Shown here piece by piece: positions 6,537 through 55,475 of a stretch of 64,000 nucleotides of DNA. The notes below the pieces were generated by a model, which was not told the DNA's origin, ran no database searches, and saw nothing but the letters and a program-made list of their open reading frames with translations. The stretch's first letter is position 1; each line of letters opens with the position of its first letter. Origin of the DNA: Solirubrobacteraceae bacterium (GTDB lineage: Bacteria > Actinomycetota > Thermoleophilia > Solirubrobacterales > Solirubrobacteraceae); NCBI GenBank assembly GCA_029263125.1, contig JAJCYD010000033.1, positions 62,001 through 126,000 on the forward strand, read 5' to 3'. Both the position numbers and the translations under genes were made by a program.

Positions 6537-7877
6537 ATGGCCAACGACGGCATGCATAACCAGAAGCTTCAGACGGTGCCCCACGCGGGCGGCGTGTTCG
6601 GTGCCGATGTCGATCCGGGAATCGGAGGGCGAGGCGGCAGCCCGGATGGGCCGCTGAACATCGTCCACGTCTTCTGGATCGCCGGTATGAGTTGCGACGG
6701 TTGCTCGATCGCCGCCACCGGCGCGACGAACCCGTCCGTCGAGGACCTGCTGCTGGGCAGGATCCCAAACCTGCCCAAGGTCGTGCTCCACCACCCGGTG
6801 CTCTCGCCCGGCGCGGGAACGGAGTTCATCCGGCCGTTCCAGGCCGCGGTGGAAGGCACGCTTGGCGCGCCGTACGTGGTCGTGCTGGAGGGCTCGGTGC
6901 CCGACGACCAGGCGTTCCCCGAGAACAACGGGTACTTCTCGGCGATGGGCGCGGGAGGCTTCGACCCGCTGTCTGACAGCGACCAGCCCAACCGCGTGAC
7001 CGACTGGCTGTGGAGGCTGGCCCCCGGCGCCGCGGCCTACGTCGCGATCGGCACATGCGCGACATGGGGCGGCATCCCAGCCGCCGCAGGCAACATCACC
7101 GGTTCGATGAGCCTCACGGACTTCCTCGGCAAGGACTACCGCTCGGCGCTCGGCGTGCCGGTCGTGAACATCCCCGGGTGCTCACCGGTCGGCGACAACT
7201 TCACCGAGACGGTGGCCGCGGTGCTGCTGTTCCTGCAGAACCTCGCGCCCGTGCCAAAGTTCGACGAGCTCGGACGGCCCGCGTGGCTGTTCAGCGAGAC
7301 GGTGCATCGCCACTGCCCGAAGGCCGGCTACTACGAGGAGGGCGTCTTCGCCGAGGAGCCGGGCGACAACCAGTGCCTCGTGGAGATCGGCTGCTGGGGG
7401 CCCGTCGTGCAATGCAACATCGTCGAGCGCGGCGCGATCAACCACATGGGCGGCTGCATGGTCGCCGGCGGCGCGTGCATCGGATGCACGATGCCCGGCT
7501 TCCCGGACAAGTTCAGCCCCTTCTACAAGGCGCCGCCCGGCTCGGCGATCTCCGGCGGCACGTCGAAGGTCACCGGCGCCGCGATCCGGCGCCTGCGGCG
7601 GATCTCGATGGCAAACGGCAACAGGACGCCGTTGTGGGACAACGCCGGCGAGGTCGCATCGGGGTGGGGCCGGGCCTCTGACATCGGCAACCCGATCAGC
7701 AAGGTGAACTCCTACTTCTACAAGAAGCTGCAGTACAGCGGCTCGGTGAACCACGCCAAGCGCAACAAGAAGCAGCCGCTGCCACAGAGCCGCGACATCC
7801 TGCGCCAGAAGGGCATCGACCTGGAGTCCAGCACCGATGTCCTGCAAGAGCATTTGATCACCCGGGAGGAGCTGTAA
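6537..7877 (+). CDS. hhyS: [NiFe]-hydrogenase small (electron-transfer) subunit, group 1h/1l-like
   Basis: 446 residues from ATG 6537. No twin-arginine signal peptide is visible, in contrast to exported group 1 enzymes. The Fe-S cluster ligands are evident: SCDGCS (Cys53, Cys56), AIGTCATWGG, NIPGCSPVGD, HRHCPKAGYY, IGCWGPVVQCN and GACIGCTMPGFPDK. It passes electrons from the Ni-Fe site toward the membrane through three clusters. The stop directly abuts the large-subunit ATG. Lack of a Tat signal, the NifU-Rieske neighbour and the actinobacterial setting suggest the oxygen-tolerant high-affinity types that consume atmospheric H2. Both subunits look longer than I expect for group 1h, so the subgroup and the symbol are provisional. 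Confidence 0.9.
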   Translation: MANDGMHNQKLQTVPHAGGVFGADVDPGIGGRGGSPDGPLNIVHVFWIAGMSCDGCSIAATGATNPSVEDLLLGRIPNLPKVVLHHPVLSPGAGTEFIRPFQAAVEGTLGAPYVVVLEGSVPDDQAFPENNGYFSAMGAGGFDPLSDSDQPNRVTDWLWRLAPGAAAYVAIGTCATWGGIPAAAGNITGSMSLTDFLGKDYRSALGVPVVNIPGCSPVGDNFTETVAAVLLFLQNLAPVPKFDELGRPAWLFSETVHRHCPKAGYYEEGVFAEEPGDNQCLVEIGCWGPVVQCNIVERGAINHMGGCMVAGGACIGCTMPGFPDKFSPFYKAPPGSAISGGTSKVTGAAIRRLRRISMANGNRTPLWDNAGEVASGWGRASDIGNPISKVNSYFYKKLQYSGSVNHAKRNKKQPLPQSRDILRQKGIDLESSTDVLQEHLITREEL

Positions 7878-9794
7878 ATGTGCTTTAAGAACCTGCCGAT
7901 CGAGTTCGACGCGCAGGGCAACGCGACGCTGAAGCCGGGCGCCGCGAACCCCTACTCGTACACCGAGACCCCCGCGCCGACGCCGATCGAGGACGACCCG
8001 GAGCGGATGCGAGAGCTGTTCGCCCGCAACGGCGCGGTTCGCCGCGTCGACTTCGATCCCGTGACCCGGGTCGCCGGCGCGCTGGCCTTCCACACGGTGG
8101 TGGACCTGGAGAACCGCCAGGTCATGGAGACGGCCTCCATGGCAACGCTGTTCCGCGGCTACGAGATCATCCTCAAGGGCCGCGATCCGCGTGACGCGAT
8201 CTTCATCTCAAGCCGCGCGTGCGGGGTGTGCGGAGGCGTCCACGCGACCTGTTCTGCGCTGGCCTGCGAGATGGCGTTCGGCATCCACCCGCCGCCGATG
8301 GGCGTCGTCGCCCGCAACATGCTGCTCGGCATCGAGTACCTCTACGACCACCCGATCCACCTGTCGCTGCTCGCGGGGCCCGACTTCTCCGAGCCGGCCA
8401 TCCGCGAGACCAACCCGGAGATCTGGGAGCGCGCCGAGCACACGCGTGCGCCGGGCCGCGCCACGCATGGCTATGAGTTCATGTCCGAGCTGATGACCGA
8501 TCTGACGCCGCTGACCGGCAAGCTGTACCTGGAGGGGCTGCACTACACGCGTCTGGCCCGCGAGGCCTACGTGCTGATCGGCGGCAAGTACCCGCACCCG
8601 CAGACGGTCGTTCCCGGCGGCGTCAGCACGACGATCGATGCGTCAGATCTCAACGAGATCATGCTGCGCGTCGTCAAGTACTTCGACTACGGGCGCAAGA
8701 CCGCCGCGATCTGGGATGACCTCGCGGACTTCTTCTATGAGGTCAACCCCAAGTACCAGGACATCGGCACGCGCCCCAAGAGCATGATCGAGCCCGGTCA
8801 GTGGGACGATCCGTACGCCTACGACGGCACGTTCAAGAACTGCGACGACTGGGGCCGCAAGCGCTGGGCGCCGCCCGGCGTGATCGTTGACGGCGAGCTG
8901 GTCACGACGAGCCTGCAGATGCTCAACGCCGGCGTCGAGGAGTTCGTCGAGCACGCGTTCTATGAGGAGTGGACGGGCGACGGCCAGAACCAGCGCTTCC
9001 CAACCGACCCCGCCGGCAACCCGTTGTCGCCCTATCACCCATGGAACAAGGACACGGTCCCCAAGCCGACCGCGACCAACTGGAAGGAGAAGTACTCCTG
9101 GTCGACGGCGCCGCGCTGGGACCGCCAGGCGATGGAGACCGGTGCCTACTCGCGCATCTGGGCGGCCGCGCAGACGGGCGCGGCGAACTTCCGTGACTCC
9201 GACTACATGAACTCCACGGGCCACAGCCTGGAGATCCACCTGCCCAAGGCCGATCTGCCCAACACGCCGATCGAATGGAGCATTCCCGAGACCTGGGGAG
9301 CCTTCGAGCGCAACAGGGCGCGTGCGTACTGCATCCTCTACACGGCCGCGATCGCCTACGACAACCTCATGATGGCGTACGACCTCCTGCGCAAGGGCGG
9401 ACCGGACGCCAAGATGTCCACGCCATACAAGATCCCCAAGGACCACCAGATCGGGGTCGGCCTGTGGAGCGCCGGACGCGGCTACCTCACGCACCACATG
9501 GAGATGGACAAGGGCGTGATCGAGAACTACCAGATCCTCACGCCCTCCACGTGGATGGCATCGCCGAAGGATCCGTTCGGCAACCCGGGTCCCTACGAGG
9601 AGGCCGTTCTGGCGACGCCGCTGCTGGAGAACTACGAGAAGCCCGAGGACTTCAAGGGCATCGACGTGCTTCGGGCGATCCGCAGCTTCGACCCGTGCAT
9701 GCCGTGCACGACCCACATGCACACCGACGATCGGACGATCACTCGCGAGATCATCAGCTGTGCGTGTGGTGCCGAAGGCCCGCATGAGCACTGA
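7878..9794 (+). CDS. hhyL: [NiFe]-hydrogenase large (catalytic) subunit
   Basis: 638 residues. The L1 motif is RACGVCGGVH (Cys115, Cys118, His122) and the L2 motif is SFDPCMPCTTH (Cys607, Cys610, His613), the four cysteines that hold Ni and Fe. The 25-residue tail after His613 contains further Cys (SCACGAEGPHEH) and would be removed if the family's usual endoproteolytic maturation applies. The N-terminus also starts with a Cys (MCFKNLP). No signal peptide. Two candidate maturation proteases follow. The enzyme oxidises H2 and delivers electrons to the small subunit. Confidence 0.93.
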   Translation: MCFKNLPIEFDAQGNATLKPGAANPYSYTETPAPTPIEDDPERMRELFARNGAVRRVDFDPVTRVAGALAFHTVVDLENRQVMETASMATLFRGYEIILKGRDPRDAIFISSRACGVCGGVHATCSALACEMAFGIHPPPMGVVARNMLLGIEYLYDHPIHLSLLAGPDFSEPAIRETNPEIWERAEHTRAPGRATHGYEFMSELMTDLTPLTGKLYLEGLHYTRLAREAYVLIGGKYPHPQTVVPGGVSTTIDASDLNEIMLRVVKYFDYGRKTAAIWDDLADFFYEVNPKYQDIGTRPKSMIEPGQWDDPYAYDGTFKNCDDWGRKRWAPPGVIVDGELVTTSLQMLNAGVEEFVEHAFYEEWTGDGQNQRFPTDPAGNPLSPYHPWNKDTVPKPTATNWKEKYSWSTAPRWDRQAMETGAYSRIWAAAQTGAANFRDSDYMNSTGHSLEIHLPKADLPNTPIEWSIPETWGAFERNRARAYCILYTAAIAYDNLMMAYDLLRKGGPDAKMSTPYKIPKDHQIGVGLWSAGRGYLTHHMEMDKGVIENYQILTPSTWMASPKDPFGNPGPYEEAVLATPLLENYEKPEDFKGIDVLRAIRSFDPCMPCTTHMHTDDRTITREIISCACGAEGPHEH

Positions 9795-13940: not shown

Positions 13941-14192
13941 ATGATGGCTTCGACCGGCGGGTGGTACCTCGGTCTGGGAATCGGTGTGAGCATCGTGGTC
14001 GTCGTGGTCGTTCTCGTGTGCATGATCATCGGGTACGCGGCGAAGATCGCCGGTCAGGCGAAGAAGGGAACCGAGGCGATGGATGCGGCATTCGCCAACA
14101 CCGACTCGGTCTGGCGCATTCGCGATATCAATCGATCGACTACGGGCATTTGGCGGGCCGCCGAATCCGCCCGCAAGTCCCTGGGGGGTTAG
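13941..14192 (+). CDS. Cassette A protein 1: small single-TM membrane protein
   Basis: 83 residues from ATG 13941 (a second ATG follows at once). A short polar start (MMASTGGWYLG) leads into one very hydrophobic segment (GIGVSIVVVVVVLVCMIIGY, about residues 12-31), then a basic-amphipathic cytosolic-looking tail (AKIAGQAKKGTEAMD, IRDINRSTTGIWRA). No known domain. It matches cassette B protein 1 (43496): both have a W-Y start, a Val/Ile-rich TM and an AxxIAxQA stretch straight after it. Nothing indicates enzymatic function. Confidence 0.72.
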   Translation: MMASTGGWYLGLGIGVSIVVVVVVLVCMIIGYAAKIAGQAKKGTEAMDAAFANTDSVWRIRDINRSTTGIWRAAESARKSLGG

Positions 14193-14198
14193 GCCGGC

Positions 14199-14453
14199 AT
14201 GACAGAGATCGAAATCTGGCAGACGAGTCTCCTGATCGGAGGGATCGTGCTCGTTGCCGTCGTCGCGCTGCTTTCCGTGCTCCTGTACGTCGTGCGCGAC
14301 GTCAACCGCAACGTCTTTGACCTGTGGACCGCCACCAAGCGCGTGGCGACGAACACGACGGGCCTGTACCAGCTCGCGGGCACGGCTTCGATCGTTCGCG
14401 CGTTGCGCGAAGAGCTGCTGCGCCAGGAAAAGCTGCTGGGTGGCGGACGATGA
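14199..14453 (+). CDS. Cassette A protein 2: small single-TM membrane protein
   Basis: 84 residues, 6 bp after protein 1. One TM (SLLIGGIVLVAVVALLSVLL, about 10-29) is followed by YVVRDVNRNVFDLWTATKRVA and an amphipathic helix ending in EELLRQEKLLGG. The counterpart in cassette B is 43756-44061: W-Q near the start, the same TM length, then a V-x-D-(V/I) turn and an A-T-x-T/H-T-S region. Function unknown; probably a structural subunit of a membrane assembly. Confidence 0.72.
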   Translation: MTEIEIWQTSLLIGGIVLVAVVALLSVLLYVVRDVNRNVFDLWTATKRVATNTTGLYQLAGTASIVRALREELLRQEKLLGGGR

Positions 14454-14731
14454 GCGCCCCGCTTCTCGGCACGAGCATCCCGCTGCTGTACGTCATCTCG
14501 GTGATCGAGGTCGTGCTCTTGGTCGCCATCCTGGGCGCGTTCCTGCTGGTCGTCGCGAAGTATCTGCGCGCCACGGCATCAACGCTCGCCGAGGTCACGT
14601 GGGGCGCGCGCGCCGTCGAGCGCCAGCTGCGCGCGGTCGGCTCCAATATCCGCCACGTCAACGCGGGTCTGACCGACGCGGCAACAGTGCTTCCGAAGGT
14701 CATCGAGCGTGCGGGTGGAGGTCCGGCATGA
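14450..14731 (+). CDS. Cassette A protein 3: small single-TM membrane protein
   Basis: 93 residues from ATG 14450, ATGA overlap with protein 2. The TM (LLYVISVIEVVLLVAILGAF, about 11-30) has a Glu inside the membrane span, matching the YIEAALLVVILSIGL span of cassette B protein 3 (44058). After the TM come VAKYLRATASTLAEV and a long helix that ends with VLPKVIERAG; cassette B has VLPGIAAKAALVVRK in the same place. The conserved acidic residue within a TM is unusual and suggests helix packing in a complex. Confidence 0.72.
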   Translation: MSAPLLGTSIPLLYVISVIEVVLLVAILGAFLLVVAKYLRATASTLAEVTWGARAVERQLRAVGSNIRHVNAGLTDAATVLPKVIERAGGGPA

Positions 14732-14976
14732 GTCTCTGGTGGGTCGTGAACATCGTTCTGATCGCGGTGATCATCCCCGTGGTGGTCGGCATCCTGCTCC
14801 AGGTGCTCACACCGCTCTTTCAGATCAAGAAATACGCGGACGACATCCTGGAGTACGGCGGGAAGCTGCCGGAACACCTCGACCAGCTTGGCGAGCTCGC
14901 CAAGACCCGGGATCTCGTCAAGCAGGCCGGTGCCGGCCTCGGCCGCTATGTCAGCGCGCTCGACAACATTCGCTAG
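14728..14976 (+). CDS. Cassette A protein 4: small single-TM membrane protein
   Basis: 82 residues, ATGA overlap with protein 3. The start MSLWWVVNIVLIAVIIPVVV is hydrophobic from the first residues; the matching gene in cassette B (44339) begins MIYLWVMDIILVASLFLLGG. After the TM is a Gln/Lys turn and a helix with LDQLGELAKTRDLVKQAGAG. No signal-peptidase site is obvious, so it is likely retained as a signal anchor. Confidence 0.72.
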   Translation: MSLWWVVNIVLIAVIIPVVVGILLQVLTPLFQIKKYADDILEYGGKLPEHLDQLGELAKTRDLVKQAGAGLGRYVSALDNIR

Positions 14977-14985
14977 GAGGACAAG

Positions 14986-15336
14986 ATGGCAGCTGGCCCC
15001 CTCGTCACACTGATCATCGTGTGCGTCGCGATCCTCGTGATCGCGGCATTCCTGATCACCGTCGTCATCCTCCTGCATATGGTGGGAGAGCGTCTCACGA
15101 AAATTCTCGGTGCTGTCGGACAGGTCGTGGAGAAGACCGACGGCATCGAGCCGATCATCAGCGAGATCGCGGCGGACCTCCAGGCCGGCGACCGGGCACT
15201 CACGGCCTGCGCTCAGCGCGTCTCGAACCGCTACCCCTCCGAGGAGGAGCTCGACGAGCGCTCCCGGACCCCGGTCGGCGTCGGCGGAGTCAGCTGGCCC
15301 GAGACCAAGCAGGCGCCGTCCTTCCGGAACTACTGA
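14986..15336 (+). CDS. Cassette A protein 5: small single-TM membrane protein
   Basis: 116 residues with a GGAGG ribosome site ending 6 nt before the ATG. The N-terminal TM (LVTLIIVCVAILVIAAFLIT, about 6-25) is followed by a helix GAVGQVVEKTDGIEPIISEI and a charged C-terminal tail. Cassette B protein 5 (44603) has the same TM plus GSVGEIVAKSAPVNGVVDAI, but carries a further ~150-residue low-complexity tail. hypC starts 53 bp downstream, tying the cassette to the hydrogenase operon. Confidence 0.72.
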   Translation: MAAGPLVTLIIVCVAILVIAAFLITVVILLHMVGERLTKILGAVGQVVEKTDGIEPIISEIAADLQAGDRALTACAQRVSNRYPSEEELDERSRTPVGVGGVSWPETKQAPSFRNY

Positions 15337-15388
15337 CGAACGGACGGGCCGGCCGACCCTTGTCATTTCCCGATCGAATGGTGAAGCG

Positions 15389-16352: not shown

Positions 16353-16383
16353 CATATATGCCAAAAACATCTACCGAGGTCAA
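16353..16383 (-). promoter_or_regulatory. Promoter of the PadR gene
   Basis: On the minus strand TTGACC (16383-16378) is followed 18-19 bp later by ATATAT/TATATG (16359-16353). It sits in an AT-rich island in the otherwise GC-rich 16211-16522 gap, about 145 bp upstream of the PadR start. The island also holds a CACATACATATATG block. The rest of the gap shows no gene. Confidence 0.55.
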
Positions 16384-16522
16384 GGGCAACACCCGAAGAA
16401 CCCCGATGCTCTCGCAGGAGGCGAGACGGTCTTGTGCGCACCTCGTGCCGACCCTGGGTGCGTTGGCCGGCGCGCCTCGCGGGCTGACCGGGCGGGCCCG
16501 TGAGGCCGGCGTTCGTCGCACG

Positions 16523-35152: not shown

Positions 35153-35973
35153 CCGCTCGACAAGAGCCGATCCAGCGGCGCCCAGAACGTCCGCCGCGCG
35201 GCGGAGGACGAGCGCTGCGGCGCGCCGTGCATGTCGACCGTTCGGTCGCGCACGATGCGCAGCGTGGTCGTCGCGCGCGTCGCGGTCCGGGCGATCGTCC
35301 GCGCGACCCCGCTGCCCACCACCCTGTCGCGCGCACCGGCGAGGACGAGCACGCGTGTGCCCGCGGGGATGTTGCGGGCGTCGACCGCGGGGATGCGCAG
35401 CGAGATCCCGCGCAGTGAGCGCCCCGGATAGACGCTGAAGACGGCGTCGGGAGCAGGCAGCTCGGCCGCTGCCGCCGATGCCGCATAGTCGGCCGCAAGC
35501 GCCCCGCCCGCCGAGTGCCCGGCGACGACGAGCCGCCGACCGCTCGCCGGCACTCGCTCGAAGGCCAGCCGCAGCGCGACGAGCGTGTCGGCCAGCGGCG
35601 TGACGGTGTCGAGGTACGGCGCGACCTGGTAGGCCGGGTAGATCACGGTCGCGCCGCCGCGCACGAGATGCGTGATCCACGCGCCGTAGAACGCGGGATC
35701 GACGGCGAACCAGCCGTGCAGGAACACGACGACCGGGCCGGCCTCCCCGGCGTCGCGAGACCGGAAGATCGCGGCGCTCGCCGCGTCGCGGCCGACGTCG
35801 ACGCGCTGCGCGCCGCGCGGCACGAACGCCTGCGCGCCCGCGGGAGCCGGGTATCGGGCCGTACGCGGCGGACGGTCGTTGCCGTCGCCGCGCAGCGCGG
35901 CTGAGACGAGCAGCACGACGACGATCACCAGCGGCACGGCGGCCGCGAGCAGCAGGGCCCGCGTGCGGTTCAT
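35149..35973 (-). CDS. Membrane-anchored alpha/beta hydrolase (lipase/esterase-like)
   Basis: 274 residues from ATG 35973. An N-terminal signal anchor ([20 protein letters not shown]) is followed by the oxyanion region [13 protein letters not shown], the nucleophile elbow [14 protein letters not shown], and the Asp region [12 protein letters not shown] His near DMHGAPQR could complete the triad. It overlaps the crtI-like gene by 4 bp. It may act on acylated glycolipids or carotenoid esters; substrate unknown. Confidence 0.82.
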
Positions 35974-37397: not shown

Positions 37398-38131
37398 CGT
37401 GATTCGCGGTGGCAGCGTGCCAGCAGCCCCGGTACGGCGAACGCCCCCATCGCGGCTGCACCTGCGAGCGCCACGCGCGGCCGGCGCCAGATGAAGACGT
37501 TCGCGACGAGCTCTCCGACCCACGTCCACGTGTACAGCGCCAGCGCCCCGTCGCCGTCGTGCAGCGGATCGTCGTCGCCGTCGACGAGCGCCCAGACCGC
37601 GAAGACCCCGGCGCTCGTGACCAGCCAGCCGAGGAAGTTGGATGCCGGGACGTTCTCATAGCGCCCGCCCTGCGGCCACGACCAGTAGCCCTCGCGCACC
37701 ATCCGCGGATCCAGGAAGACGTCCCACGCCGTTAGCGCGCCCGCGGCCAGCATGACGCGCGCGGCTCGCCGACGGGAGATCAGGCCGGCCACGACCCACG
37801 ACGGCCGCGCCATCATCGACCAGGCTGCTGCCGCCGCGAGCGGCACGCCGCCGACCTTGCGCCCGAGCAGCGAGGAGTACGTGTAGTGCCCGAAGGGCTT
37901 GCCGGTCGCGACGCCGGCGAGCTCGGTCGCGAAGCCCAGCGTGGCCGCGCTGCCCAGCAGCGCCGATGCGCGTGCGGGGCCGCGGGCGGCGACCGCGTCG
38001 GCGCTCGATGCACCCCACAACAGCCCGACGATCGCCTTGGTCCCCGCGGGCGTGCGCAGCTTGGCGACCTTGCCGTAGACCATCTGCGTCACGACGAGCG
38101 CGCCGAACAGCGACCCGAAGGCGCGCCTCAT
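37394..38131 (-). CDS. cruF: CruF-like carotenoid 1',2'-hydratase
   Basis: 245 residues with at least six TM segments. Family motifs include ATGKPFGHYTYSSLLG, KVGGVPLAAAAAWSMMARPS and LTAWDVFLDPRMVREGYWSW. CruF (DUF422) adds water to the psi end of lycopene-like carotenoids. It is overlapped on both sides by crt genes, so it belongs to the same transcript. Together with the glycosyltransferase it predicts hydroxylated, glycosylated acyclic carotenoids. Confidence 0.86.
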   Translation of the reverse strand: MRRAFGSLFGALVVTQMVYGKVAKLRTPAGTKAIVGLLWGASSADAVAARGPARASALLGSAATLGFATELAGVATGKPFGHYTYSSLLGRKVGGVPLAAAAAWSMMARPSWVVAGLISRRRAARVMLAAGALTAWDVFLDPRMVREGYWSWPQGGRYENVPASNFLGWLVTSAGVFAVWALVDGDDDPLHDGDGALALYTWTWVGELVANVFIWRRPRVALAGAAAMGAFAVPGLLARCHRESR

Positions 38132-38958
38132 GTGCGCTGCTGGGGGGTACGCGCCCGCGCGGCGACGAGCAGCTTGCGCCTGCGACCGACGATCGCGCGG
38201 CCGGCCTGCGCGCCGTACCCGTCGCGCTCGATCTGGCGCAGGATCTCGCGGTACATCGCGCCCGCCGCGACGATCGCCCGCCGGCCGCAGGGCAGCATCG
38301 AGATGCCCGCCGCGCCCTGGTCGTAGAGCGCGTCGGCGCGGGCGATCTGGTCGCGCAGCAGCGTCTCGCGCTGCGACGGAGGGGGAACGGTGCTGCAGCC
38401 GAAGTGCTCGAGCGTCTCGCGCGCCAGGTAGACGCGCCCGGCCTCCAGGTCCTCGTCGATGTCGCGCAGGATGTTCGTGCGCTGCATCGCCTGACCGAGC
38501 GCGGACGCGTGGCCCGGCGCCGCCGGGTCGCTCGCGCCGAGCACGGCGGCCATGACCACGCCGACGGTGCCGGCGACGCGGTGGCAGTAGACGTCCAGCT
38601 CGGCCTCGGTGGCGATCGGCACCTCGCCGAGATCGTGGCGCATGCCCGCGCAGAACTCCGCGAACGCGTCGCGCGGCAGCTCGTGCCGGCCTTCCAGGTC
38701 GTGCAGCAGCGCCACCTCGCGAGACTCCGCCGCCTCACCGGCGCACCAGGCCTCGACCGCATCCAGCCGCTCGGAGGCACGCTCGTCGCCGTGGTCGACG
38801 AGATCGTCGAGCGTGCGGAAGACGAGATACAGGCGGTAGACGTCGTCGCGCAGCTCGCGCGGCAGCAGCCGGCACGCAAGCGCGAACGTGCGTGCGACGC
38901 GCTTGGTCGTCGCCCGCGCCTCGACCAGGTCGCGGTCCTCAGACCGGTGCAGCAGCAT
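38128..38958 (-). CDS. crtB: Phytoene synthase
   Basis: 276 residues if ATG 38958 is used; it has a GAGGGGCG ribosome site, while the in-frame ATG at 38982 does not. The first Asp-rich motif is DDLVD (residues 51-55) and the second is RTNILRDIDEDLEAGR. TKRVARTFALACRLLP and GISMLPCGRRAIVAA are family blocks. It condenses two GGPP to phytoene. It overlaps crtI by 20 bp and cruF by 4 bp. Confidence 0.93.
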   Translation of the reverse strand: MLLHRSEDRDLVEARATTKRVARTFALACRLLPRELRDDVYRLYLVFRTLDDLVDHGDERASERLDAVEAWCAGEAAESREVALLHDLEGRHELPRDAFAEFCAGMRHDLGEVPIATEAELDVYCHRVAGTVGVVMAAVLGASDPAAPGHASALGQAMQRTNILRDIDEDLEAGRVYLARETLEHFGCSTVPPPSQRETLLRDQIARADALYDQGAAGISMLPCGRRAIVAAGAMYREILRQIERDGYGAQAGRAIVGRRRKLLVAARARTPQQRT

Positions 38959-40417
38959 GAGCGCCCCTCCCCGCGGCGGCATGGTCGCGCGCGATCATCC
39001 CCGTCGTGACCTCGGCGCCGAGCAGAACCCCGGGGATGCCGGCGCCCGGATGGGTGCCCCCGCCGACGTAGTACAGGCCGCGCAGCGTCTTGTCGCGGTT
39101 GGGCGGACGCAGCCACGCGGACTGCTGGAGCGTCGGCTCGACGGCGAACGCGTTGCCCCAGGCAGCGCCGAGATCGCGCTCGAAGTCATCCGGCGTCATG
39201 CGGTGCTCGACGATCGTCGCGGCGTCCAGGCCACCGAGGCCGAAGGTCGTCTCCAGGTCCTCGACGAGCGCGTCGCGCACGCGGTCGGATTCGCTGTCCC
39301 AGTCGATGCGGTGGCGGCGCTGGTTGGGTACCGGCAGCAGCACGCACAGCGAGTCGCCGCCGGCCGCGGCCATCCCCGGTTCGCTGCGCGCCGGCGCGTG
39401 GACGTAGGTCGAGAACGTCGGCGCGAGGCGACCGCGGCGCGTGACGTCGCGGATGAAGCGCCGGTAGCCGCTGCCGACGAGCAGCGTGTGGTGCAGCAGC
39501 GAGTCGAACGTGCGGTCGGTTCCCAGGTACAGCAAAAAGCACGACATCGTCGGCGTGAGCCGGCGCACCGGCGCGCGCTGGCCGGTGAGCTCGTGCGTTC
39601 GCAGAACGTCGGCGTTTGACACCACGACGTCGGCGTCGATGCGGCCGGCGCCCTCGAGCACGACGCCCGTGACCTTGCCCTGGCGATGCTCGATGCGCTC
39701 GACGCGCTCGCCGCAGCGCATGTCGAGGCCGCGGGCCATCGCCTCGACGATCGCGTACACGCCGCCCTGCGCGTACCAGACCTCGTCGAGGAACTGCAGG
39801 TAGACGAGCGCTCCATAGATAGCTGGTACGCGAAACGGGTCTCCACCGATGAACAGCGAGTGAAACGAGAACGCCTCGCGCACGCGCGGGTGCTCGAAAT
39901 GCGAGCACACCGTGCGCCACAGCGGCAGCGCGGCGCCCAGGCGCAGCATCGAAGGCGTGAAGGCGACGAGATCGCGCGCGCGCTCGAACGGTCGCCGCCC
40001 GGCGCCGAGGATTCCCTGCTCGTAGATCGGCTTCATCGCGGCCATGAAGCCATCGAACGCCGCGGCGTCGCGTGCGGAGAACTTCGCGAGCTCCGCGCGC
40101 ATCCGCTCGCGGTCGCCGGTGAAGTCCAGGTGCTCCTCGGACTGCGCCCAGCGGATGCGGTAGAACGGATCCAGGCGCCGCAGCTGCACGTGATCGTGCA
40201 GATTGAGTCCCGCGGCCTCGAAGGTCTCCTCCAGCACCCATGGCATCGTCACGAGCGATGGGCCGGTGTCCCAGGTGAACCCCGCGTCGCGCAGCTGATA
40301 GGCGCGGCCACCGGGACGAGCGCGGGCCTCGAGGACAATCACGTCATGTCCGGCTCCCTGGAGGCGCATCGCCGCTCCGAGTCCGCCGAGTCCGGCACCG
40401 ACGACGACGACCCTCAT
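38939..40417 (-). CDS. crtI: Phytoene desaturase
   Basis: 492 residues from ATG 40417, first gene of the carotenoid operon. MRVVVVGAGLGGLGAAMRLQ binds FAD, WDTGPSLVTMPWVLEETFEA is the conserved second block, and YVGGGTHPGAGIPGVLLGAE is the C-terminal signature. It converts phytoene to lycopene in the membrane. No obvious promoter dyad precedes it. Confidence 0.93.
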   Translation of the reverse strand: MRVVVVGAGLGGLGAAMRLQGAGHDVIVLEARARPGGRAYQLRDAGFTWDTGPSLVTMPWVLEETFEAAGLNLHDHVQLRRLDPFYRIRWAQSEEHLDFTGDRERMRAELAKFSARDAAAFDGFMAAMKPIYEQGILGAGRRPFERARDLVAFTPSMLRLGAALPLWRTVCSHFEHPRVREAFSFHSLFIGGDPFRVPAIYGALVYLQFLDEVWYAQGGVYAIVEAMARGLDMRCGERVERIEHRQGKVTGVVLEGAGRIDADVVVSNADVLRTHELTGQRAPVRRLTPTMSCFLLYLGTDRTFDSLLHHTLLVGSGYRRFIRDVTRRGRLAPTFSTYVHAPARSEPGMAAAGGDSLCVLLPVPNQRRHRIDWDSESDRVRDALVEDLETTFGLGGLDAATIVEHRMTPDDFERDLGAAWGNAFAVEPTLQQSAWLRPPNRDKTLRGLYYVGGGTHPGAGIPGVLLGAEVTTGMIARDHAAAGRGAHAAAPV

Positions 40418-41032: not shown

Positions 41033-41884
41033 ATGTCCCGGCGCATCGGCGCCACAACGGCGGAGCGTTCAGTGCCGACGCTAACTCGAAACAAGCGTAA
41101 GTCGGCGTCGCCGCAGTCCGCGCAGCCCACCGGCCCGAGTCGGTCCAGTGGCAGCAGAGGTGGCGTCCAGGGCGTCAACCTGATCATTCTGATCCTCGTT
41201 GCCGCGTCGGTGACCATCGCGGCGGGCCTGCTCGCCAAGACGGTCAACACCGCGCGCAGCATCGACGGCAAGGCGAAGAGCATCAGCAGCACGGGCGGCA
41301 CGATCAACGCCTCGACTGATGCCATCGGCGAGCTCGTCCAGACCAACAAGATCGCTCGCTCGATTCTCAAGACGGCCTCTCCGCTTGACGGGGTCCTCAC
41401 GAAGATCGTCCAGCGCGCGTCCTCGATCAACCGCGACGCGGCATCGATTGACGGGCTGGCCAGCTCGATCACCAACACGGCCGGCACGATCAACACCACA
41501 GCGAAGTCGATCGGCGGCTCAGCAACCGCGATTCTCGGTGTTGGCGGGACGATCAACGGCACGGCCAAGGAGATCAACGGCACCGCCGGGTCCATCGACA
41601 CCGTCGCAGGCGGCATCAACAGCACCGCCAGCGCGATCAACCGCACCGCGCGGACGATCAACACGACCGCAGGCACGATCCTCGGTACGGCACGGACGAT
41701 CGACAACGACGCCACGACGATCATCTCCGGCCTGAGCGCCACCGATGGCATCGCCAAGTCGATCAAGGTCGACTCGGGGAACATCCTGGTCGTGTCCGAT
41801 CGCATCCTGGACACCGCCGGCTGCATCGACAAGTCGCTGCCGGGCAGCGGCAAGCCGGCCGATTCGTGTCAGGGCAAGCCATGA
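41033..41884 (+). CDS. Single-TM protein with strict Ile/Ala heptad repeats, number 1
   Basis: 283 residues from ATG 41033; GTG 41075 has a better ribosome site (GGAG, 6 nt spacing) and is a real alternative. A basic, Ser-rich N-tail precedes one TM (about 48-69, VNLIILILVAASVTIAAGLL). Ile then recurs at exactly every seventh position from 132 to 230 (15 in a row), with Ala four residues later in almost every repeat (unit I-N-x-T-A-x-x). This predicts a long, regular coiled coil or helical rod of about 15 nm. Two Cys near the end (AGCIDKSLP, DSCQGKP) could make a disulphide. No known family. First gene of an eight-gene operon. Confidence 0.8.
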   Translation: MSRRIGATTAERSVPTLTRNKRKSASPQSAQPTGPSRSSGSRGGVQGVNLIILILVAASVTIAAGLLAKTVNTARSIDGKAKSISSTGGTINASTDAIGELVQTNKIARSILKTASPLDGVLTKIVQRASSINRDAASIDGLASSITNTAGTINTTAKSIGGSATAILGVGGTINGTAKEINGTAGSIDTVAGGINSTASAINRTARTINTTAGTILGTARTIDNDATTIISGLSATDGIAKSIKVDSGNILVVSDRILDTAGCIDKSLPGSGKPADSCQGKP

Positions 41885-41924
41885 GCCGCACGATGAGCAA
41901 CGACGAGACACTGCGGAGGTCCCT

Positions 41925-42677
41925 ATGCCACGCCTAGCATCCGACACAAGGTGGACATGGATCTTCGCCACCATCCTGATCCTGGTCGTCGTCGTGGTGA
42001 TCGGCTTTTTGTCCGGCATCACGAGCGCCCTGAGCTCGATCGACAAGGCTCTGGGCACGACGGACAAGACGCTGGTCGACGTCAACAAGGACGCCGACCC
42101 GCTGCCCGACTACGTCAAGACGATCAACGGCAACCTGACGGCGATCGACAAGGCGCTGAAGCCGGTTCCCGGCCAGGGCATCGCGATCCTCGGCTCGCTG
42201 ACCTCGATCAACAGCCTGACCGGGCGGGTCGACTCCGCTCTGAAGACGACGGACTCGTCGTTGCAGGACACGTCGTCCTCGCTGGTCAACACCGGCGGAG
42301 ACCTCGGGACGATCACCGGCTCGCTGCAGGACACGTCGGGGTCGCTGACCGACACGTCCAACGCGCTGAAGGGCACGACCAACGTCTTGGTGACGATCCG
42401 CGGCACGCTGCGGACGATCTCGGGCACGCTGGTCAACGTCAACACGCGCGCCTCGCAGATCAGCCAGGAGCTCAAGGACATCCAGTCCCCGGGTAGCTCG
42501 GGCACGGGCGCTGTTCCGGGTCTCGTCACCCAGATCAACGCTGACCTGACGGCCGTCAACCGCGACACCACGCCGATCAACGTGGGCCTGAACAAGACCC
42601 ATGCTCACCTGAACAGCGCGTGCGAGTCGATCGTCGTCGGCCTCCTGAGCCTCATCCTGGCGGAGAACAAGTGCTAG
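41925..42677 (+). CDS. Single-TM heptad-repeat protein, number 2
   Basis: 250 residues from ATG 41925 with a CGGAGG ribosome site. One TM (about 12-31, IFATILILVVVVVIGFLSGI) is followed by a heptad array built on Leu (units such as SLQDTSS, SLVNTGG, SLTDTSN and TLVNVNT), and the end carries two Cys (NSACESIVV, ENKC). It shares the layout of numbers 1 and 3: short cytosolic end, one TM, long heptad rod, Cys near the C-terminus. Not recognised as any named family. Confidence 0.8.
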   Translation: MPRLASDTRWTWIFATILILVVVVVIGFLSGITSALSSIDKALGTTDKTLVDVNKDADPLPDYVKTINGNLTAIDKALKPVPGQGIAILGSLTSINSLTGRVDSALKTTDSSLQDTSSSLVNTGGDLGTITGSLQDTSGSLTDTSNALKGTTNVLVTIRGTLRTISGTLVNVNTRASQISQELKDIQSPGSSGTGAVPGLVTQINADLTAVNRDTTPINVGLNKTHAHLNSACESIVVGLLSLILAENKC

Positions 42678-42710
42678 GAACTCAGCTAACAATGCGAGGG
42701 GGGCGCAGCC

Positions 42711-43499
42711 ATGCGTAACATCCTCAGCGGGGCACGAGGGATGAGTCCTGTGGTCCTCGTCATCCTGATCGCGTGGGCACTGCTCTCGGTGATCTTCCTG
42801 ACGGGAACCCTGCTGGCCGCCCGGTCTATTGACCGGTCGGTGAGCGGCGTGACCAACAGGACCGATGACAGTGGCAAGCCCGAGAAGAACATCGGCCAGA
42901 CGGTCGAGGAGATCGGCGCGGAGGCCAAGTTCATCGACGAGGCCCGCAAGACCGTTCAGATCTCCACGGCGATCCGGAAGGCGGCAGACCCGCTCTCCGG
43001 CCGGATGGCGACGACGCTCGAGGTGGCTGACAAGGGCATCAAGCCCAAGCTCGGCTCGATCCTCAAGAAGGTCGGCGTGATCAACGGTGTTGCGACCGAG
43101 ATCAACGGAACCGTCAAGACGATCGGCGGCACCGTCGACCAGATCCTTGCGGCGGTCCTCGAGATCAACGGCAGCGCCACGTCGATCAACTCCAAGGTGC
43201 GGAACATCGGGCGAAACGTCCGGACGATCGACACCTCGGCGAGTCAGATCAACGGCAGCGCCCGCAGCATTCTCGGGCGGTTGTCGTCGGTCCTGTCGGC
43301 AGCTCAGCGGATCGACACCAAGGTCGAGACGATCAATGGCCAGGCGAAGGGCGTTCTCGCCACCACCGGGCCGATCCTCTCGGACTTCAACGGGATCCTC
43401 GCGAACGTGGGTACGGAGAACAACACGAACACCGTCACCGGTCACGCCAATGGCGTCGACTGTTCCACGCTGATCAGCGGAGCGGGGTGCAACAAGTGA
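42711..43499 (+). CDS. Single-TM heptad-repeat protein, number 3
   Basis: 262 residues from ATG 42711. TM at about 13-36 (PVVLVILIAWALLSVIFLTG). Ile recurs every seven residues from 124 to 208 with one Val substitution at 194 (units VINGVAT, EINGTVK, TIGGTVD, EINGSAT, QINGSAR). Two Cys close the protein (VDCSTLIS, GAGCNK). Its stop overlaps the GTG of the first cassette B gene, so rod proteins and cassette are translated together. Confidence 0.8.
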   Translation: MRNILSGARGMSPVVLVILIAWALLSVIFLTGTLLAARSIDRSVSGVTNRTDDSGKPEKNIGQTVEEIGAEAKFIDEARKTVQISTAIRKAADPLSGRMATTLEVADKGIKPKLGSILKKVGVINGVATEINGTVKTIGGTVDQILAAVLEINGSATSINSKVRNIGRNVRTIDTSASQINGSARSILGRLSSVLSAAQRIDTKVETINGQAKGVLATTGPILSDFNGILANVGTENNTNTVTGHANGVDCSTLISGAGCNK

Positions 43500-43759
43500 T
43501 TCTCGGAGCCACCTACACCGATTGGTACATCGGCTTCTCGTTGGCGTTCATCGTCATCGTGGTAGTCGTGATCATCGTGTCGACGATCCTCACCCTGGCG
43601 GCGCGCATCGCCGACCAGGCGCGAGCAGCGGCGGCGGGAGTGGACGTCGTCCGCGCCCAGACGACGAGTCTGGACGCGGGTGTTGAGCTCGTGAACGACT
43701 GTGCCGTGCGGATCCTCCACATGGCGCGGGCGCTCAGAAAGATCGCGGTGGGCAAATGA
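43496..43759 (+). CDS. Cassette B protein 1: small single-TM membrane protein
   Basis: 87 residues from GTG 43496 (GTGA overlap). TDWYIGFSLAFIVIVVVVII is the N-terminal TM region, followed by LAARIADQARAAAAGVD and a helix ending MARALRKIAVGK. It matches cassette A protein 1 in length, W-Y start and the A-x-x-IA-x-QA block after the TM. Function unknown. Confidence 0.72.
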   Translation: MILGATYTDWYIGFSLAFIVIVVVVIIVSTILTLAARIADQARAAAAGVDVVRAQTTSLDAGVELVNDCAVRILHMARALRKIAVGK

Positions 43760-44061
43760 CTTCCATCATGGCCGCATTCGACACGCACGCGCTGTGGCAG
43801 ATCGCCGTCGGCATGGGCGCGGTCGTTCTGATCGTGGTCGTCATCCTGCTGATGCTCCTGCTGAGCTTCGTCAAGGACATTCAGCAGAGCGTGGCGATCC
43901 TGCTCGAGACGGCTCCGATCGTCGCGAAGCACACATCGAAGATCCCGCTGCTGGCGTTGACGCCGGCAGTGCTGAACCTCGTCATCGAGGAGGCCATCAT
44001 TCAGGACGGATACATGAACGCCCTGACCGACGGTTACACGGGAGCGGGTGAGTCACTGTGA
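43756..44061 (+). CDS. Cassette B protein 2: small single-TM membrane protein
   Basis: 101 residues, ATGA overlap. DTHALWQIAVGMGAVVLIVV leads into the TM, with SFVKDIQQSVAILLETAPIV after it. A C-terminal helix reads LNLVIEEAIIQDGYM. The matching cassette A gene is 14199. The overlap of starts and stops across the whole block implies one stoichiometrically expressed unit. Confidence 0.72.
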   Translation: MTSIMAAFDTHALWQIAVGMGAVVLIVVVILLMLLLSFVKDIQQSVAILLETAPIVAKHTSKIPLLALTPAVLNLVIEEAIIQDGYMNALTDGYTGAGESL

Positions 44062-44336
44062 GCAGAGAGCTCCTGATTCTCATCAGCTACATCGAGGCTG
44101 CGCTGCTCGTCGTGATCCTCTCGATCGGGCTCAACCAGGTGCGCAAGCGCCTGATCATCATCTCCAACGGGCTCGGCGAGCTGGGCGGGATGTTGGCGAC
44201 GGTCGAGTCCCAGCACCTGCGGGGGCTGGCCAAGTGGGTGGCCGACATCAACGGCCCACTCCAGGTCATCACGGGCGTTCTTCCCGGCATCGCCGCGAAG
44301 GCCGCGCTCGTCGTCCGCAAGGCAACGGGGGGCTGA
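44058..44336 (+). CDS. Cassette B protein 3: small single-TM membrane protein
   Basis: 92 residues from GTG 44058 (GTGA overlap). SRELLILISYIEAALLVVIL is the TM with an intramembrane Glu, as in cassette A protein 3. It continues with NQVRKRLIIISNGLGELGGM and ends VLPGIAAKAALVVRKATGG. No known domain. Confidence 0.72.
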   Translation: MSRELLILISYIEAALLVVILSIGLNQVRKRLIIISNGLGELGGMLATVESQHLRGLAKWVADINGPLQVITGVLPGIAAKAALVVRKATGG

Positions 44337-44338
44337 CG

Positions 44339-44593
44339 ATGATCTACCTATGGGTCATGGACATCATCCTGGTCGCGTCGCTGTTTCTGCTCGGAGGGCT
44401 GCTCAAGGGCGTCCTCGGTGCGGCGAAGAGCATCGTGCCCAGGATCGATGCGATCGCCGGCGTCGCCGCTGCCGCGTCGAAGGATCTCGACGCGGTCGTG
44501 GTCCTGCTGACGACGCAGAACTACATCAGCCAGATCGTGGGATCTGTCGCCAACTACGGGGGCTCTCTTGACATCGCCCTCCCGGACGCATAA
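44339..44593 (+). CDS. Cassette B protein 4: small single-TM membrane protein
   Basis: 84 residues from ATG 44339. MIYLWVMDIILVASLFLLGG starts directly in the membrane, like cassette A protein 4 (MSLWWVVNIVLIAVIIPVVV). The tail has a helix SKDLDAVVVLLTTQNYISQI. Function unknown. Confidence 0.72.
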   Translation: MIYLWVMDIILVASLFLLGGLLKGVLGAAKSIVPRIDAIAGVAAAASKDLDAVVVLLTTQNYISQIVGSVANYGGSLDIALPDA

Positions 44594-44602
44594 GGAGACC
44601 TG

Positions 44603-45409
44603 ATGTCACTTGCATTGGCAGTCATGATCCTCCTGATCACGCTGATCATCGCGGCGCTTGCGATCTACCTGATCTCGACGATTGCCGAGCTCATCAAGAT
44701 CAACAGGGGCCTGGCCGTGGTCATCGGCTCGGTCGGCGAGATCGTGGCGAAGAGCGCGCCGGTCAACGGCGTGGTCGACGCGATCAACAGCAACCTCGTC
44801 GCCGGACGCAACCTGCTGGAGAACCTGTTCCTCAAGAAGGGTGGCGACGACTGCGGCGGACTCGTCGAGTCGCTGTTCCCCGGTGAGGGCGCGAAGTTCC
44901 TGCAGCGGGTCGGTCGCAGAGGCTCGGTCGTCAACACCGGCATCGTGTACACGCGCGGAACGCAGATCCTGGCGTCGTTGGGTCGAGGCGCGCCGATCGG
45001 CGCGGCGCATGCCCGCGGTCCCGCGGTGCGCGACCCGAAGTACGCGACGACCGCTGCGTCGATGCTGTACCCGCGTCCGGGCGGCGACCCCAAGGCGCGC
45101 CCGAAGTCACCGGTCGTCGGTGGCAACTCGCCGCGTCAGTTCGAAGCGGCGCTCACCCCGGGCACACGCCCGCGGCTGCGCGACGGTTCGGAGGCGCCTC
45201 CGCCGTCAGCCGCTCCGGACATGCCCATGGGCGGCTCGACAGGCAACGTGCCGATGCCATCGTTCGGTGGCGGGCCCAGCGCACCGACCGGTCGGGTGGA
45301 GATCGCGACGCCGCCTCCGGCGGCGGCCGCACCCCCTCCGGCCGAGGATGCCGGTGGCGACGAGCCCGGAAGGTTGAATGTGAAGGGCAAGCGTCCCTGG
45401 GAACGCTGA
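44603..45409 (+). CDS. Cassette B protein 5: single-TM protein with long disordered tail
   Basis: 268 residues with a GGAGA ribosome site. Residues 1-70 match cassette A protein 5 (TM, then GSVGEIVAKSAPVNGVVDAI). From about residue 110 the protein is Pro/Gly/Ala-rich and probably disordered (MPMGGSTGNVPMPSFGGGPS), ending in basic KGKRPWER. The extra tail is the main difference between the cassettes and might tether a partner. It closes the operon, directly before a terminator. Confidence 0.75.
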   Translation: MSLALAVMILLITLIIAALAIYLISTIAELIKINRGLAVVIGSVGEIVAKSAPVNGVVDAINSNLVAGRNLLENLFLKKGGDDCGGLVESLFPGEGAKFLQRVGRRGSVVNTGIVYTRGTQILASLGRGAPIGAAHARGPAVRDPKYATTAASMLYPRPGGDPKARPKSPVVGGNSPRQFEAALTPGTRPRLRDGSEAPPPSAAPDMPMGGSTGNVPMPSFGGGPSAPTGRVEIATPPPAAAAPPPAEDAGGDEPGRLNVKGKRPWER

Positions 45410-45420
45410 TCGTTGGATGA

Positions 45421-45453
45421 GAGAGCCCGGCTTCGGCCGGGCTCTCTCTTTCG
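45421..45453 (+). terminator. Intrinsic terminator of the repeat-protein/cassette B operon
   Basis: A perfect 11-bp stem (45421-45431 with 45436-45446) and a TTCG loop, followed by TCTTTC. It lies 12 bp after the stop at 45409. The stable tetraloop and T-rich tail make it the clearest terminator in the window. Confidence 0.9.
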
Positions 45454-45474: not shown

Positions 45475-46056
45475 GTGAATCGCAAGCTGCTGGGCCTTGT
45501 CGCAGTCGCCGCGGTGCTTGCGCTCATCGTCGGGGTCTCGGTCGGGCGCAACCTCATCTCCTCCGAGGCCGCGCTTCCCCAGAAGCCCGACGTCATTCGC
45601 GTCAAGGACGCGGCGTCGGGAACGTCGATCGCCTACCCGGGGGCATGGACGGCGTTGCCGCGGCCCGAGGGCGATGGCGATCTGGTCTTGAGCGTCAAGC
45701 GCGACGACGATGTCGCATCATTTCTCGTGCGCACGAGCAAGACGGACTTTGCGGAGGAGGTCACGCTCGCGGGGCTTCCCGTCGTGCGCCAGCTGACCGA
45801 CGACCTGCTGGCAGCCGACGATCGCGTGAAGCTGCTTCGCCAGCCGAACACCGTCGAGCTCGGCGGCCTGCCGGGCTGGCGATACCAATACACCTTCGGG
45901 TCCGCCGCCAGCGGTGGCGCGCATGACCACTACTTCCTGTTCAAGAAGGGCCTGCTGATTCAGATCGTGTTCCAAGCGCAGCCAAAGGAGCGCCTGAAGG
46001 GTCTGCTGCCGGACTTCGAGAGGATCGCTGCGACCTTCCGCGGCAACGACGCGTAG
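45475..46056 (+). CDS. Secreted or anchored PsbP/LpqN-like domain protein
   Basis: 193 residues from GTG 45475. The N-terminal hydrophobic segment (LLGLVAVAAVLALIVGVSVG) is a signal anchor. The remainder resembles PsbP/DUF1795-type folds: GTSIAYPGAWTALPRPEGDG, LVLSVKRDDDVASFLVRT and, near the end, HYFLFKKGLLIQIVFQAQP. Such domains bind lipids, metals or partner proteins, and no catalytic motif is seen. It is separated from the previous operon by the terminator. Confidence 0.65.
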   Translation: MNRKLLGLVAVAAVLALIVGVSVGRNLISSEAALPQKPDVIRVKDAASGTSIAYPGAWTALPRPEGDGDLVLSVKRDDDVASFLVRTSKTDFAEEVTLAGLPVVRQLTDDLLAADDRVKLLRQPNTVELGGLPGWRYQYTFGSAASGGAHDHYFLFKKGLLIQIVFQAQPKERLKGLLPDFERIAATFRGNDA

Positions 46057-49010: not shown

Positions 49011-49889
49011 TTGGCAATGCAGACCCCTGCACCGGTTGAGTATTCGCGCGCAACCAGTGTCGATGACGCCATCACACAGATGGCGAGCCACAATGGCAAC
49101 GCCCGATTCCTCGCCGGCGGCCACAGCTTGATCCCGATGATGAAGCTGCGCCTTGCCGATCCGGGCCACCTCATCGACATCAATCCGATCGAGGCCGAGC
49201 TCAACTACATTCGCGAGGAAGGCGGCGAGATCCGCATCGGTGCCATGACGCGGCACCGCAACATGCTCGAGAGCGACGTGCTCGCCAAGCACTTCCCGAT
49301 CTTCTTCGAGGCCGAGCACGTGCTCGCCGACCCGGTCGTGCGCAACCGCGGCACGATGGGCGGGTCGCTGTGCCAGGCCGACCCGGCTGAGGACCTCTCA
49401 GGCGTCGTCACCGCGCTCAAGGGCGAGGCCGTCCTGCGTGGACCCGGTGGCGCCGAGCGCGTCGTCGGCATGGAGGAGTTCCACATCGGGCCGTACATGA
49501 CGGCCGTCCAGCCCGACGAGCTGCTCATCGAGGTGCGCTTCAAGGTCAAGCCGGGCGGTGGCAGCGCGCACGAGAAGGTCGAGCGTCGCGCGGGAGACTT
49601 CGCCATCGTGGCCGCATCTGCCGCACTGTGGATCGAGGGCGGCGTGATCAAGGACTGCGGACTGGCATGCAGCGCCGTCGGCCCCACCACGATGCACATC
49701 GGGCGTGCAGAAGCTGCCGTGATCGGGAAGGCCCCCTCCGAGGAGCTCTTCGCCCAGGCCGGCGCGATGGCATCGCAGGACTGCTCGCCAAGCGCCGACG
49801 GTCGCGGACCGGTCGATTACAAGCGTCACGTCGCGGGCGTCCTCAGCAAGCGAGCCCTCAGCCGCGCTGCCGCCAGCGCGCTGCGATAG
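49011..49889 (+). CDS. coxM: Aerobic CO dehydrogenase medium (FAD) subunit
   Basis: 292 residues from TTG 49011, chosen because GGAAGGA (48994-49000) is well spaced for it; ATG 49017 is the alternative. FAD-binding motifs are FLAGGHSLIPMMKLRLADP and VRNRGTMGGSLCQADPAEDL. It takes electrons from CoxS and hands them to the respiratory chain. First gene of the cox operon. Confidence 0.95.
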   Translation: MAMQTPAPVEYSRATSVDDAITQMASHNGNARFLAGGHSLIPMMKLRLADPGHLIDINPIEAELNYIREEGGEIRIGAMTRHRNMLESDVLAKHFPIFFEAEHVLADPVVRNRGTMGGSLCQADPAEDLSGVVTALKGEAVLRGPGGAERVVGMEEFHIGPYMTAVQPDELLIEVRFKVKPGGGSAHEKVERRAGDFAIVAASAALWIEGGVIKDCGLACSAVGPTTMHIGRAEAAVIGKAPSEELFAQAGAMASQDCSPSADGRGPVDYKRHVAGVLSKRALSRAAASALR

Positions 49890-49901
49890 GAGATTTGACG
49901 A

Positions 49902-50393
49902 ATGCTAGTTTCAATGTCGATCAATGGCCAGACGCACTCGCACGATGTCGAGCCGCGCATGCTGCTCGTGCATTACATCCGCGAGATGGCCGAGCTGCAC
50001 GGCACCCACTGGGGCTGCGACACGTCCAACTGCGGCATCTGCGTGGTGCTGATGGACGGCGACCCGATCAAGTCGTGCACCACGCTCGCAGCCATGGCCG
50101 AGGGCCACGAGATCACCACCGTCGAGGGCCTCGAGAAGAACGGCGTCCTCGATCCGATCCAGCAGGGCTTTCATGAGATGCATGCCCTGCAGTGCGGCTT
50201 TTGCACCCCCGGGATGATGGTCACCGGCCGCGCGCTGATCGACCAGCATCCCAACCCGACCCAAATGACCGACTACGAGATCCGTGAAGCGATCTCTGGA
50301 GGCCTGTGTCGCTGCACTGGCTACGTGAACATCGTCAAGGCGATCAGGTGGGCTGCCGCATACGAGGCAGCCGCCGCCACCGGAGGTAATTGA
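49902..50393 (+). CDS. coxS: Aerobic CO dehydrogenase small (2Fe-2S) subunit
   Basis: 163 residues. The plant-ferredoxin type cluster is in GCDTSNCGICVVLMDG, continuing to SCTTLA. The second cluster is in LQCGFCTPGMMVTG and GGLCRCTGYVNIVKAI. Both are complete. It links the Mo-Cu site in CoxL with FAD in CoxM. 4 bp from coxL. Confidence 0.96.
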   Translation: MLVSMSINGQTHSHDVEPRMLLVHYIREMAELHGTHWGCDTSNCGICVVLMDGDPIKSCTTLAAMAEGHEITTVEGLEKNGVLDPIQQGFHEMHALQCGFCTPGMMVTGRALIDQHPNPTQMTDYEIREAISGGLCRCTGYVNIVKAIRWAAAYEAAAATGGN

Positions 50394-50396
50394 TTC

Positions 50397-52813
<2,417 letters not shown>

Positions 52814-52817
<4 letters not shown>

Positions 52818-55444: not shown

Positions 55445-55449
55445 TGCTC

Positions 55450-55467
55450 CCTCCAACACGTTGGAGG
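55450..55467 (+). promoter_or_regulatory. Inverted repeat that can hide the coxE ribosome site
   Basis: A perfect 18-nt inverted repeat (arms 55450-55457 and 55460-55467) whose 3' arm contains the GGAGG used by the GTG start of coxE at 55476. In the mRNA this hairpin would compete with ribosome binding unless coxD translation (stop at 55442-55444) opens it. The natural 2-nt loop means one or two closing pairs must open. Confidence 0.6.
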
Positions 55468-55475
55468 AACCACTA

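What the first reader, a model, noticed from the sequence alone, without database searches (positions are those of the whole stretch)
41033..43499. Three adjacent single-TM proteins carry exact seven-residue rods
In the first protein Ile falls at every seventh residue from 132 to 230 without a break, with Ala at +4 in nearly every unit. The third does the same from 124 to 208. The second uses Leu-based heptads. All have one N-terminal TM and paired Cys at the end. This predicts long extracytoplasmic coiled-coil rods anchored at the membrane, co-translated with cassette B. The function and family are unknown to me.
Basis: partly seen in the sequence, partly recalled or inferred. Interest (0 to 1): 0.88.

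Follow-up and report, generated by a model that had tools for sequence, protein, structure and literature searches.

The report
Matched rod trio beside gas-scavenging enzymes
Three neighbouring genes encode membrane-anchored helical rods whose lengths change together across species and which nearly always sit beside enzymes that oxidise hydrogen or carbon monoxide, so they are probably part of the missing membrane scaffold for these gas-scavenging enzymes.

Summary
Genes A (41033-41884), B (41925-42677) and C (42711-43499) each encode one N-terminal TM, a seven-residue rod and a tail Cys pair. A has Ile at 16 consecutive heptad positions (shuffles reach at most 6). No Pfam, NCBIfam or PHROGs family matches them.

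The trio is a conserved A-B-C module in Solirubrobacterales MAGs and other Actinomycetota classes. In 16 of 19 genomes, high-affinity [NiFe]-hydrogenase or form I CO dehydrogenase lies on the same contig, 15 times within 13 kb. The other three sit on short contigs with hyp or CoxG-like genes. In the window the trio shares an operon with five short TM genes (D-H) beside coxMSL. D-H resemble the published HylTM1-5 of group 1l hydrogenase clusters.

Rod lengths of A, B and C covary after phylogenetic correction (r 0.85-0.96). A conserved proline sits about 49 residues above the membrane in all three. D-H face inward by charge; B and C face outward, A is undecided. A PsbP-like partner (gene I) accompanies the trio.

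Best reading: A, B and C form one hetero-oligomeric outward rod of the membrane scaffold of trace-gas oxidation. Module membership is well supported; the mechanism is inferred. The trio appears undescribed; HylTM1-5 are known.

The parts
41033..41884 (+). Protein A (283 aa): basic N-terminal tail, TM 50-68, Ile/Ala heptad rod, Cys264/Cys279 (start may be GTG 41072)
41925..42677 (+). Protein B (250 aa): TM, Leu/Ser-Thr heptad rod, Cys233/Cys250
42711..43499 (+). Protein C (262 aa): TM, Ile/Val heptad rod, Cys251/Cys260; carries a 14-residue (two-heptad) insert near the membrane not seen in close relatives
43487..43759 (+). Short TM protein D (HylTM-like), C-terminus predicted cytosolic
43756..44061 (+). 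Short TM protein E (HylTM-like)
44058..44336 (+). Short TM protein F (HylTM-like)
44333..44593 (+). Short TM protein G (HylTM-like)
44603..45409 (+). TM protein H (HylTM-like N-terminus with Pro-rich tail), last gene of the operon
45419..45448 (+). Terminator-like hairpin after H
   Evidence: -37.5 kcal/mol, z -6.5
45475..46056 (+). Protein I: signal anchor plus PsbP-like domain; accompanies the ABC trio
   Evidence: some homologues pass the Pfam PsbP cut-off; the window protein itself does not
49017..52817 (+). coxM-coxS-coxL: form I aerobic CO dehydrogenase (CoxL active-site loop AYRCSFR)
6537..9794 (+). [quoted passage not shown] no TM predicted in the small subunit
13941..15336 (+). The other five-gene short TM cassette ('cassette A'), in the hydrogenase operon, without ABC

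Best explanation
A, B and C are three paralogous single-span proteins that assemble side by side into one hetero-oligomeric, outward-pointing coiled-coil rod, kinked at a shared proline about 49 residues above the membrane and capped by tail disulfides. Through their TM helices they join the inward-facing short TM proteins D-H (HylTM-like) to form a membrane scaffold that docks the soluble, cytosolic gas oxidases (high-affinity [NiFe]-hydrogenase or form I CO dehydrogenase) next to the menaquinone pool; the outer rod, with the PsbP-like protein I, fixes this island in the cell wall. Shown here: the heptad rods, conservation, operon layout, association with the enzymes, and length matching. Supported by sequence signals only: the two opposite topologies and the relation to the short TM proteins. 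Inferred: physical complex, docking, quinone supply, wall attachment, disulfides.
For: Association: in 16 of 19 trio-bearing genomes a hydrogenase large subunit or CoxL lies on the same contig at 4.7-31 kb, 15 within 13 kb; the other three trios are on contigs of 7-28 kb that carry hyp genes (G005, G387) or a CoxG-like gene (G579). CoxL passes its NCBIfam cut-off. The trio sits beside CODH in two separate branches (window genus; G491/G579/G559) and beside hydrogenase in the others, so it most likely serves a step shared by both enzymes, and membrane coupling is the obvious one. Length matching: TM-to-Cys distances of A, B and C covary (PIC r 0.96/0.85/0.88, n=16; 0.95/0.92/0.94 without one ambiguous locus; gene I length shows no correlation). 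Shared proline at +47 to +52 in nearly all loci (window C is at +62 because of its insert). Topology: 76 of 78 short cassette proteins carry more Lys/Arg after the TM and none more before it; B and C show the reverse. One-pass profiles: the B profile searched in whole genomes hits, besides trios, mainly short cassette genes. Open need: group 1h hydrogenase lacks a known anchor although membrane association matters for affinity (PMC7174314; PMC6883350); Huc uses a coiled-coil stalk (PMC10017518).
Against: No experiment and no multimer prediction. A's charge pattern does not decide its side. B's AlphaFold model is low confidence. In L021, L023 and L024 the trio has no short cassette beside it, and cassette-only clusters exist without the trio (L075-L077, L080, L081), so the trio is an optional addition. 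Matched length could reflect wall thickness rather than direct contact. The rods are low-complexity, so similarity between trio and cassette could be partly convergent. Window C is two heptads longer than A and B would predict.
Confidence: 0.5

Rival explanations
1. The rods form a quinone conduit or stalk that works like HucM: a coiled-coil tube carrying menaquinone between membrane and enzyme, with the rods on the cytosolic side.
For: Huc's HucM is a coiled-coil stalk of a hydrogenase (PMC10017518); the rod profiles match coiled coils including designed helical barrels.
Against: B and C are predicted outward by charge, tail Cys pairs fit an oxidising side, the A profile gave no HucM hit and the B profile only E 0.4, and alternate core positions are Ala in A and Ser/Thr in B, which does not make an obviously greasy bore.
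Confidence: 0.15
2. The trio is an envelope sensor or assembly factor that adjusts or protects the gas oxidases, for example reporting wall or starvation state, rather than a permanent scaffold.
For: Rod profiles resemble chemoreceptor coiled coils; a PsbP-like partner could be an assembly factor, as PsbP relatives are elsewhere (own knowledge).
Against: No signalling domain, kinase or regulator is consistently linked; the short cassette members have no output domain.
Confidence: 0.15
3. The trio has an unrelated surface role (wall attachment or cell-cell contact) and is a neighbour of the gas-oxidation genes by hitchhiking.
For: In L021, L023 and L024 the trio is not next to the short cassette; the enzyme can be 31 kb away (G011).
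Against: The association recurs across several families and classes with varied gene order; hitchhiking would not predict this.
Confidence: 0.12

Closest known systems
HylTM1-5 of group 1l [NiFe]-hydrogenase clusters (PMC9561532)
   Same: Five short single-TM proteins in hydrogenase clusters; in L075 and L081 the cassette lies between small and large subunit as described; window D-H and 13941-15336 are the same kind by profile and layout.
   Different: A, B and C are 250-283 aa with long rods, tail Cys pairs and (B, C) opposite topology; the cassette and trio also occur with CO dehydrogenase.
HucM stalk of Mycobacterium smegmatis Huc (PMC10017518)
   Same: A coiled-coil part linking a high-affinity hydrogenase to the membrane.
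   Different: HucM is peripheral, on the cytosolic side, one gene, homotetrameric; no significant sequence match (E 0.4 with the B profile, none with A).
MCE family proteins (TIGR00996)
   Same: One TM plus a long extracytoplasmic helix; weak rod match (E 0.0025 to 0.0053).
   Different: Far below the cut-off (16-17 bits against 140) and no MCE domain hit in Pfam.
DUF948 (PF06103)
   Same: TM plus heptad helix; weak match.
   Different: Scores 14-20 bits against a cut-off of 37.

Membership tests
HylTM1-5-type short TM cassette (for D-H) | Five consecutive short single-TM proteins | tested here: met
   43487-45409 and 13941-15336; H is longer because of a Pro-rich tail
HylTM1-5-type short TM cassette (for D-H) | Encoded in a high-affinity hydrogenase cluster | tested here: met
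   Of 31 cassette genomes in the phylum sample 25 have HhyL or CoxL within 8.1 kb (counted by hand); in the window D-H sit beside CODH and the second cassette in the hydrogenase operon
HylTM1-5-type short TM cassette (for D-H) | Position between small and large subunit genes | tested here: not met
   Not in the window (subunits adjacent at 6537-9794); met in L075 and L081. D-H are therefore called HylTM-like, not HylTM1-5
HylTM1-5-type short TM cassette (for A-C) | Short (about 80-120 aa), C-terminus inside | tested here: not met
   250-283 aa; B and C predicted outside. A-C are treated as probable relatives, not members
HucM | Sequence match to HucM | tested here: not met
   E 0.4 with the B profile, absent with the A profile
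MCE proteins | MCE domain after the TM | tested here: not met
Phage tape measure proteins | Significant tape-measure family match or phage neighbourhood | tested here: not met
   PHROGs tape-measure hits only at E 0.026 or worse; neighbours are metabolic genes
Coiled-coil rod | Continuous heptad core and helical model | tested here: met
   for A; B's model is helical but low confidence, C not modelled
Coiled-coil rod | Oligomeric state (trimer or other, homo or hetero) | not testable with these tools
   only single-chain prediction is offered

The most novel reading that the evidence does not exclude
A-B-C with D-H and I form one envelope-spanning machine, interchangeable between hydrogenase and CO dehydrogenase, that holds these soluble enzymes at the menaquinone pool; a three-chain rod with matched lengths projects 20-30 nm into the wall. 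This would be a new kind of respiratory-enzyme anchor.
Probability: 0.3. Interest if true: 0.85.

Novelty: new variant of a known kind. Interest (0 to 1): 0.7.

Why it matters
Bacteria that oxidise atmospheric H2 and CO are a major sink for these gases, yet how several of their soluble high-affinity enzymes are held at the membrane is described as unresolved (PMC6883350, PMC7174314). This finding names a small, testable set of genes (trio, short cassette, PsbP-like partner) that accompanies both enzyme types, and shows length-matched rods that predict a specific three-part structure.

Tried and rejected
Known families: Pfam, NCBIfam and PHROGs gave only sub-threshold coiled-coil hits for A-C; tape-measure, MCE, DUF948 and chemoreceptor readings were rejected for that reason. 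Iterated profiles seeded with D-H pulled in A-C as well, but the five families lost their identity in the process, so I rely on the one-pass searches instead. Fold searches were not run: a single long helix matches any coiled coil. The original group 1l paper (PNAS 2021) is not held, so I could not check whether it mentions the rod trio. Tail Cys in protein C of locus L068 are ambiguous (four Cys), so the length results are given with and without it.

Full report
Observation. The three genes are real and as described. A (41033-41884), B (41925-42677) and C (42711-43499) have one N-terminal TM, a heptad rod and two tail Cys. Ile recurs 16 times at +7 in A and 12 times in C, Leu 10 times in B; shuffled sequences gave Ile runs of at most 6. 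C has a Val at 194, so its run is not pure Ile to 208. Gene spacing and overlaps and a strong hairpin after H indicate one operon A-H. Pfam, NCBIfam and PHROGs have no family for A-C.

Conservation. A search of relatives with C found the trio in the same order in the genus, other genera of the family and another family of the order. Alignments show mostly whole-heptad indels in the rods and invariant tail Cys pairs. A scan of a public genome collection with the B profile found 15 loci, all actinobacterial MAGs, mostly Solirubrobacterales/Thermoleophilaceae. Searches at class and phylum level found further full trios in other classes. In every complete locus A, B and C are together on one strand; L030 and L036 show only A and B because their contigs end there.

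Neighbourhood. The window is a gas-oxidation island: a hydrogenase operon with a five-gene short TM cassette (6537-15667), the trio with a second short TM cassette (41033-45409), moaA/moaC, coxMSL with accessory genes (49017-56936), then hyp genes. CoxL passes TIGR02416 and carries AYRCSFR; the hydrogenase large subunit is closest to 5AA5 among solved structures. In 16 of 19 trio genomes a hydrogenase large subunit or CoxL lies on the trio's contig, 15 within 13 kb. In the three others the contig is short and carries hyp genes or a CoxG-like gene. The CoxG-like call rests on sequence resemblance I recognised, not on a family search. In the phylum sample all 8 trio genomes have one of the enzymes.

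The short cassette. Published work names five short TM proteins, HylTM1-5, between the group 1l hydrogenase subunit genes (PMC9561532). L075 and L081 have that layout. Of 31 cassette genomes in the phylum sample, 25 have HhyL or CoxL within 8.1 kb (my hand count). So D-H are HylTM-like, and in the window and some relatives they accompany CO dehydrogenase. I did not assign the window hydrogenase to subgroup 1h, 1l or 1m.

Matched rods. The distance from TM to first tail Cys is similar in A, B and C and changes together: for example 147/148/145 in L072, 162/170/173 in L070, 192/197/202 in L025 and 217/253/243 in L032. Phylogenetic contrasts give r 0.96, 0.85 and 0.88 with 16 loci; without the ambiguous L068, 0.95, 0.92 and 0.94; gene I length gives no correlation. 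One control, the spacing of the two tail Cys in B, does correlate with rod A (r 0.71), so not every control is flat. The tree came from the proteins' own membrane-near parts. A conserved proline sits at +49 in most A, +47 to +51 in B and +48 to +52 in C, except window C, which carries a two-heptad insert. Three chains in register would explain this best; a shared wall distance is the alternative.

Structure and topology. AlphaFold2 gives A as TM helix, break at 87-95, then one helix 96-267 with pLDDT mostly 84-92. B is all-helical but low confidence. C was not modelled. Charges put the short cassette C-termini inside (76 of 78) and B and C outside; A is undecided. If A continues as one helix its rod is roughly 25 nm (172 residues at 0.15 nm, inference).

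Mechanism. Because the trio accompanies hydrogenase in some lineages and CO dehydrogenase in at least two separate branches, it most likely serves what these enzymes share: coupling a soluble enzyme to the membrane and quinone pool. The literature calls this coupling unresolved for group 1h and shows a coiled-coil stalk for Huc. I therefore favour a membrane scaffold with an outer rod. This step is inference.

Limits. Most loci are MAG contigs, gene calls outside the window are from a simple script, the null for proximity was not simulated, the genomes are not phylogenetically independent, and no complex was predicted or tested.

Noticed in passing
window 43487-45409; L077:7676-9444; also G044, G073, G470, G539, G549, G613, G646: HylTM-like cassettes also occur beside CO dehydrogenase, which the paper read here describes only for hydrogenase.
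   Followed up: partly
window 45475-46056; L069:7856-8509; L073:11129-11848: A PsbP-like protein with conserved GGLPG and HxHYF motifs accompanies the trio in 16 of 20 loci and none of five cassette-only loci.
   Followed up: partly
G000:C33:127499-129202 (about 1.5 kb beyond the window end): A second hydrogenase large subunit, 42% identical to the window one, follows the hyp genes at the window end.
   Followed up: no
L073 (G559): 6849-8653 and 15178-16504: A second B-like and C-like gene and a second PsbP-like gene suggest a duplicated module in one genome.
   Followed up: no
L022:6474-6905; similar at L019:4342-4779, L020:2444-2893, L082:7705-8139: A small membrane protein (DUF4383 in L022) recurs near the trio.
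   Followed up: partly
window 35970-40417: Carotenoid-type genes (two desaturase-like, CrtB-like, CarF-like; recognised by eye) lie between the hydrogenase and CODH parts of the island.
   Followed up: no
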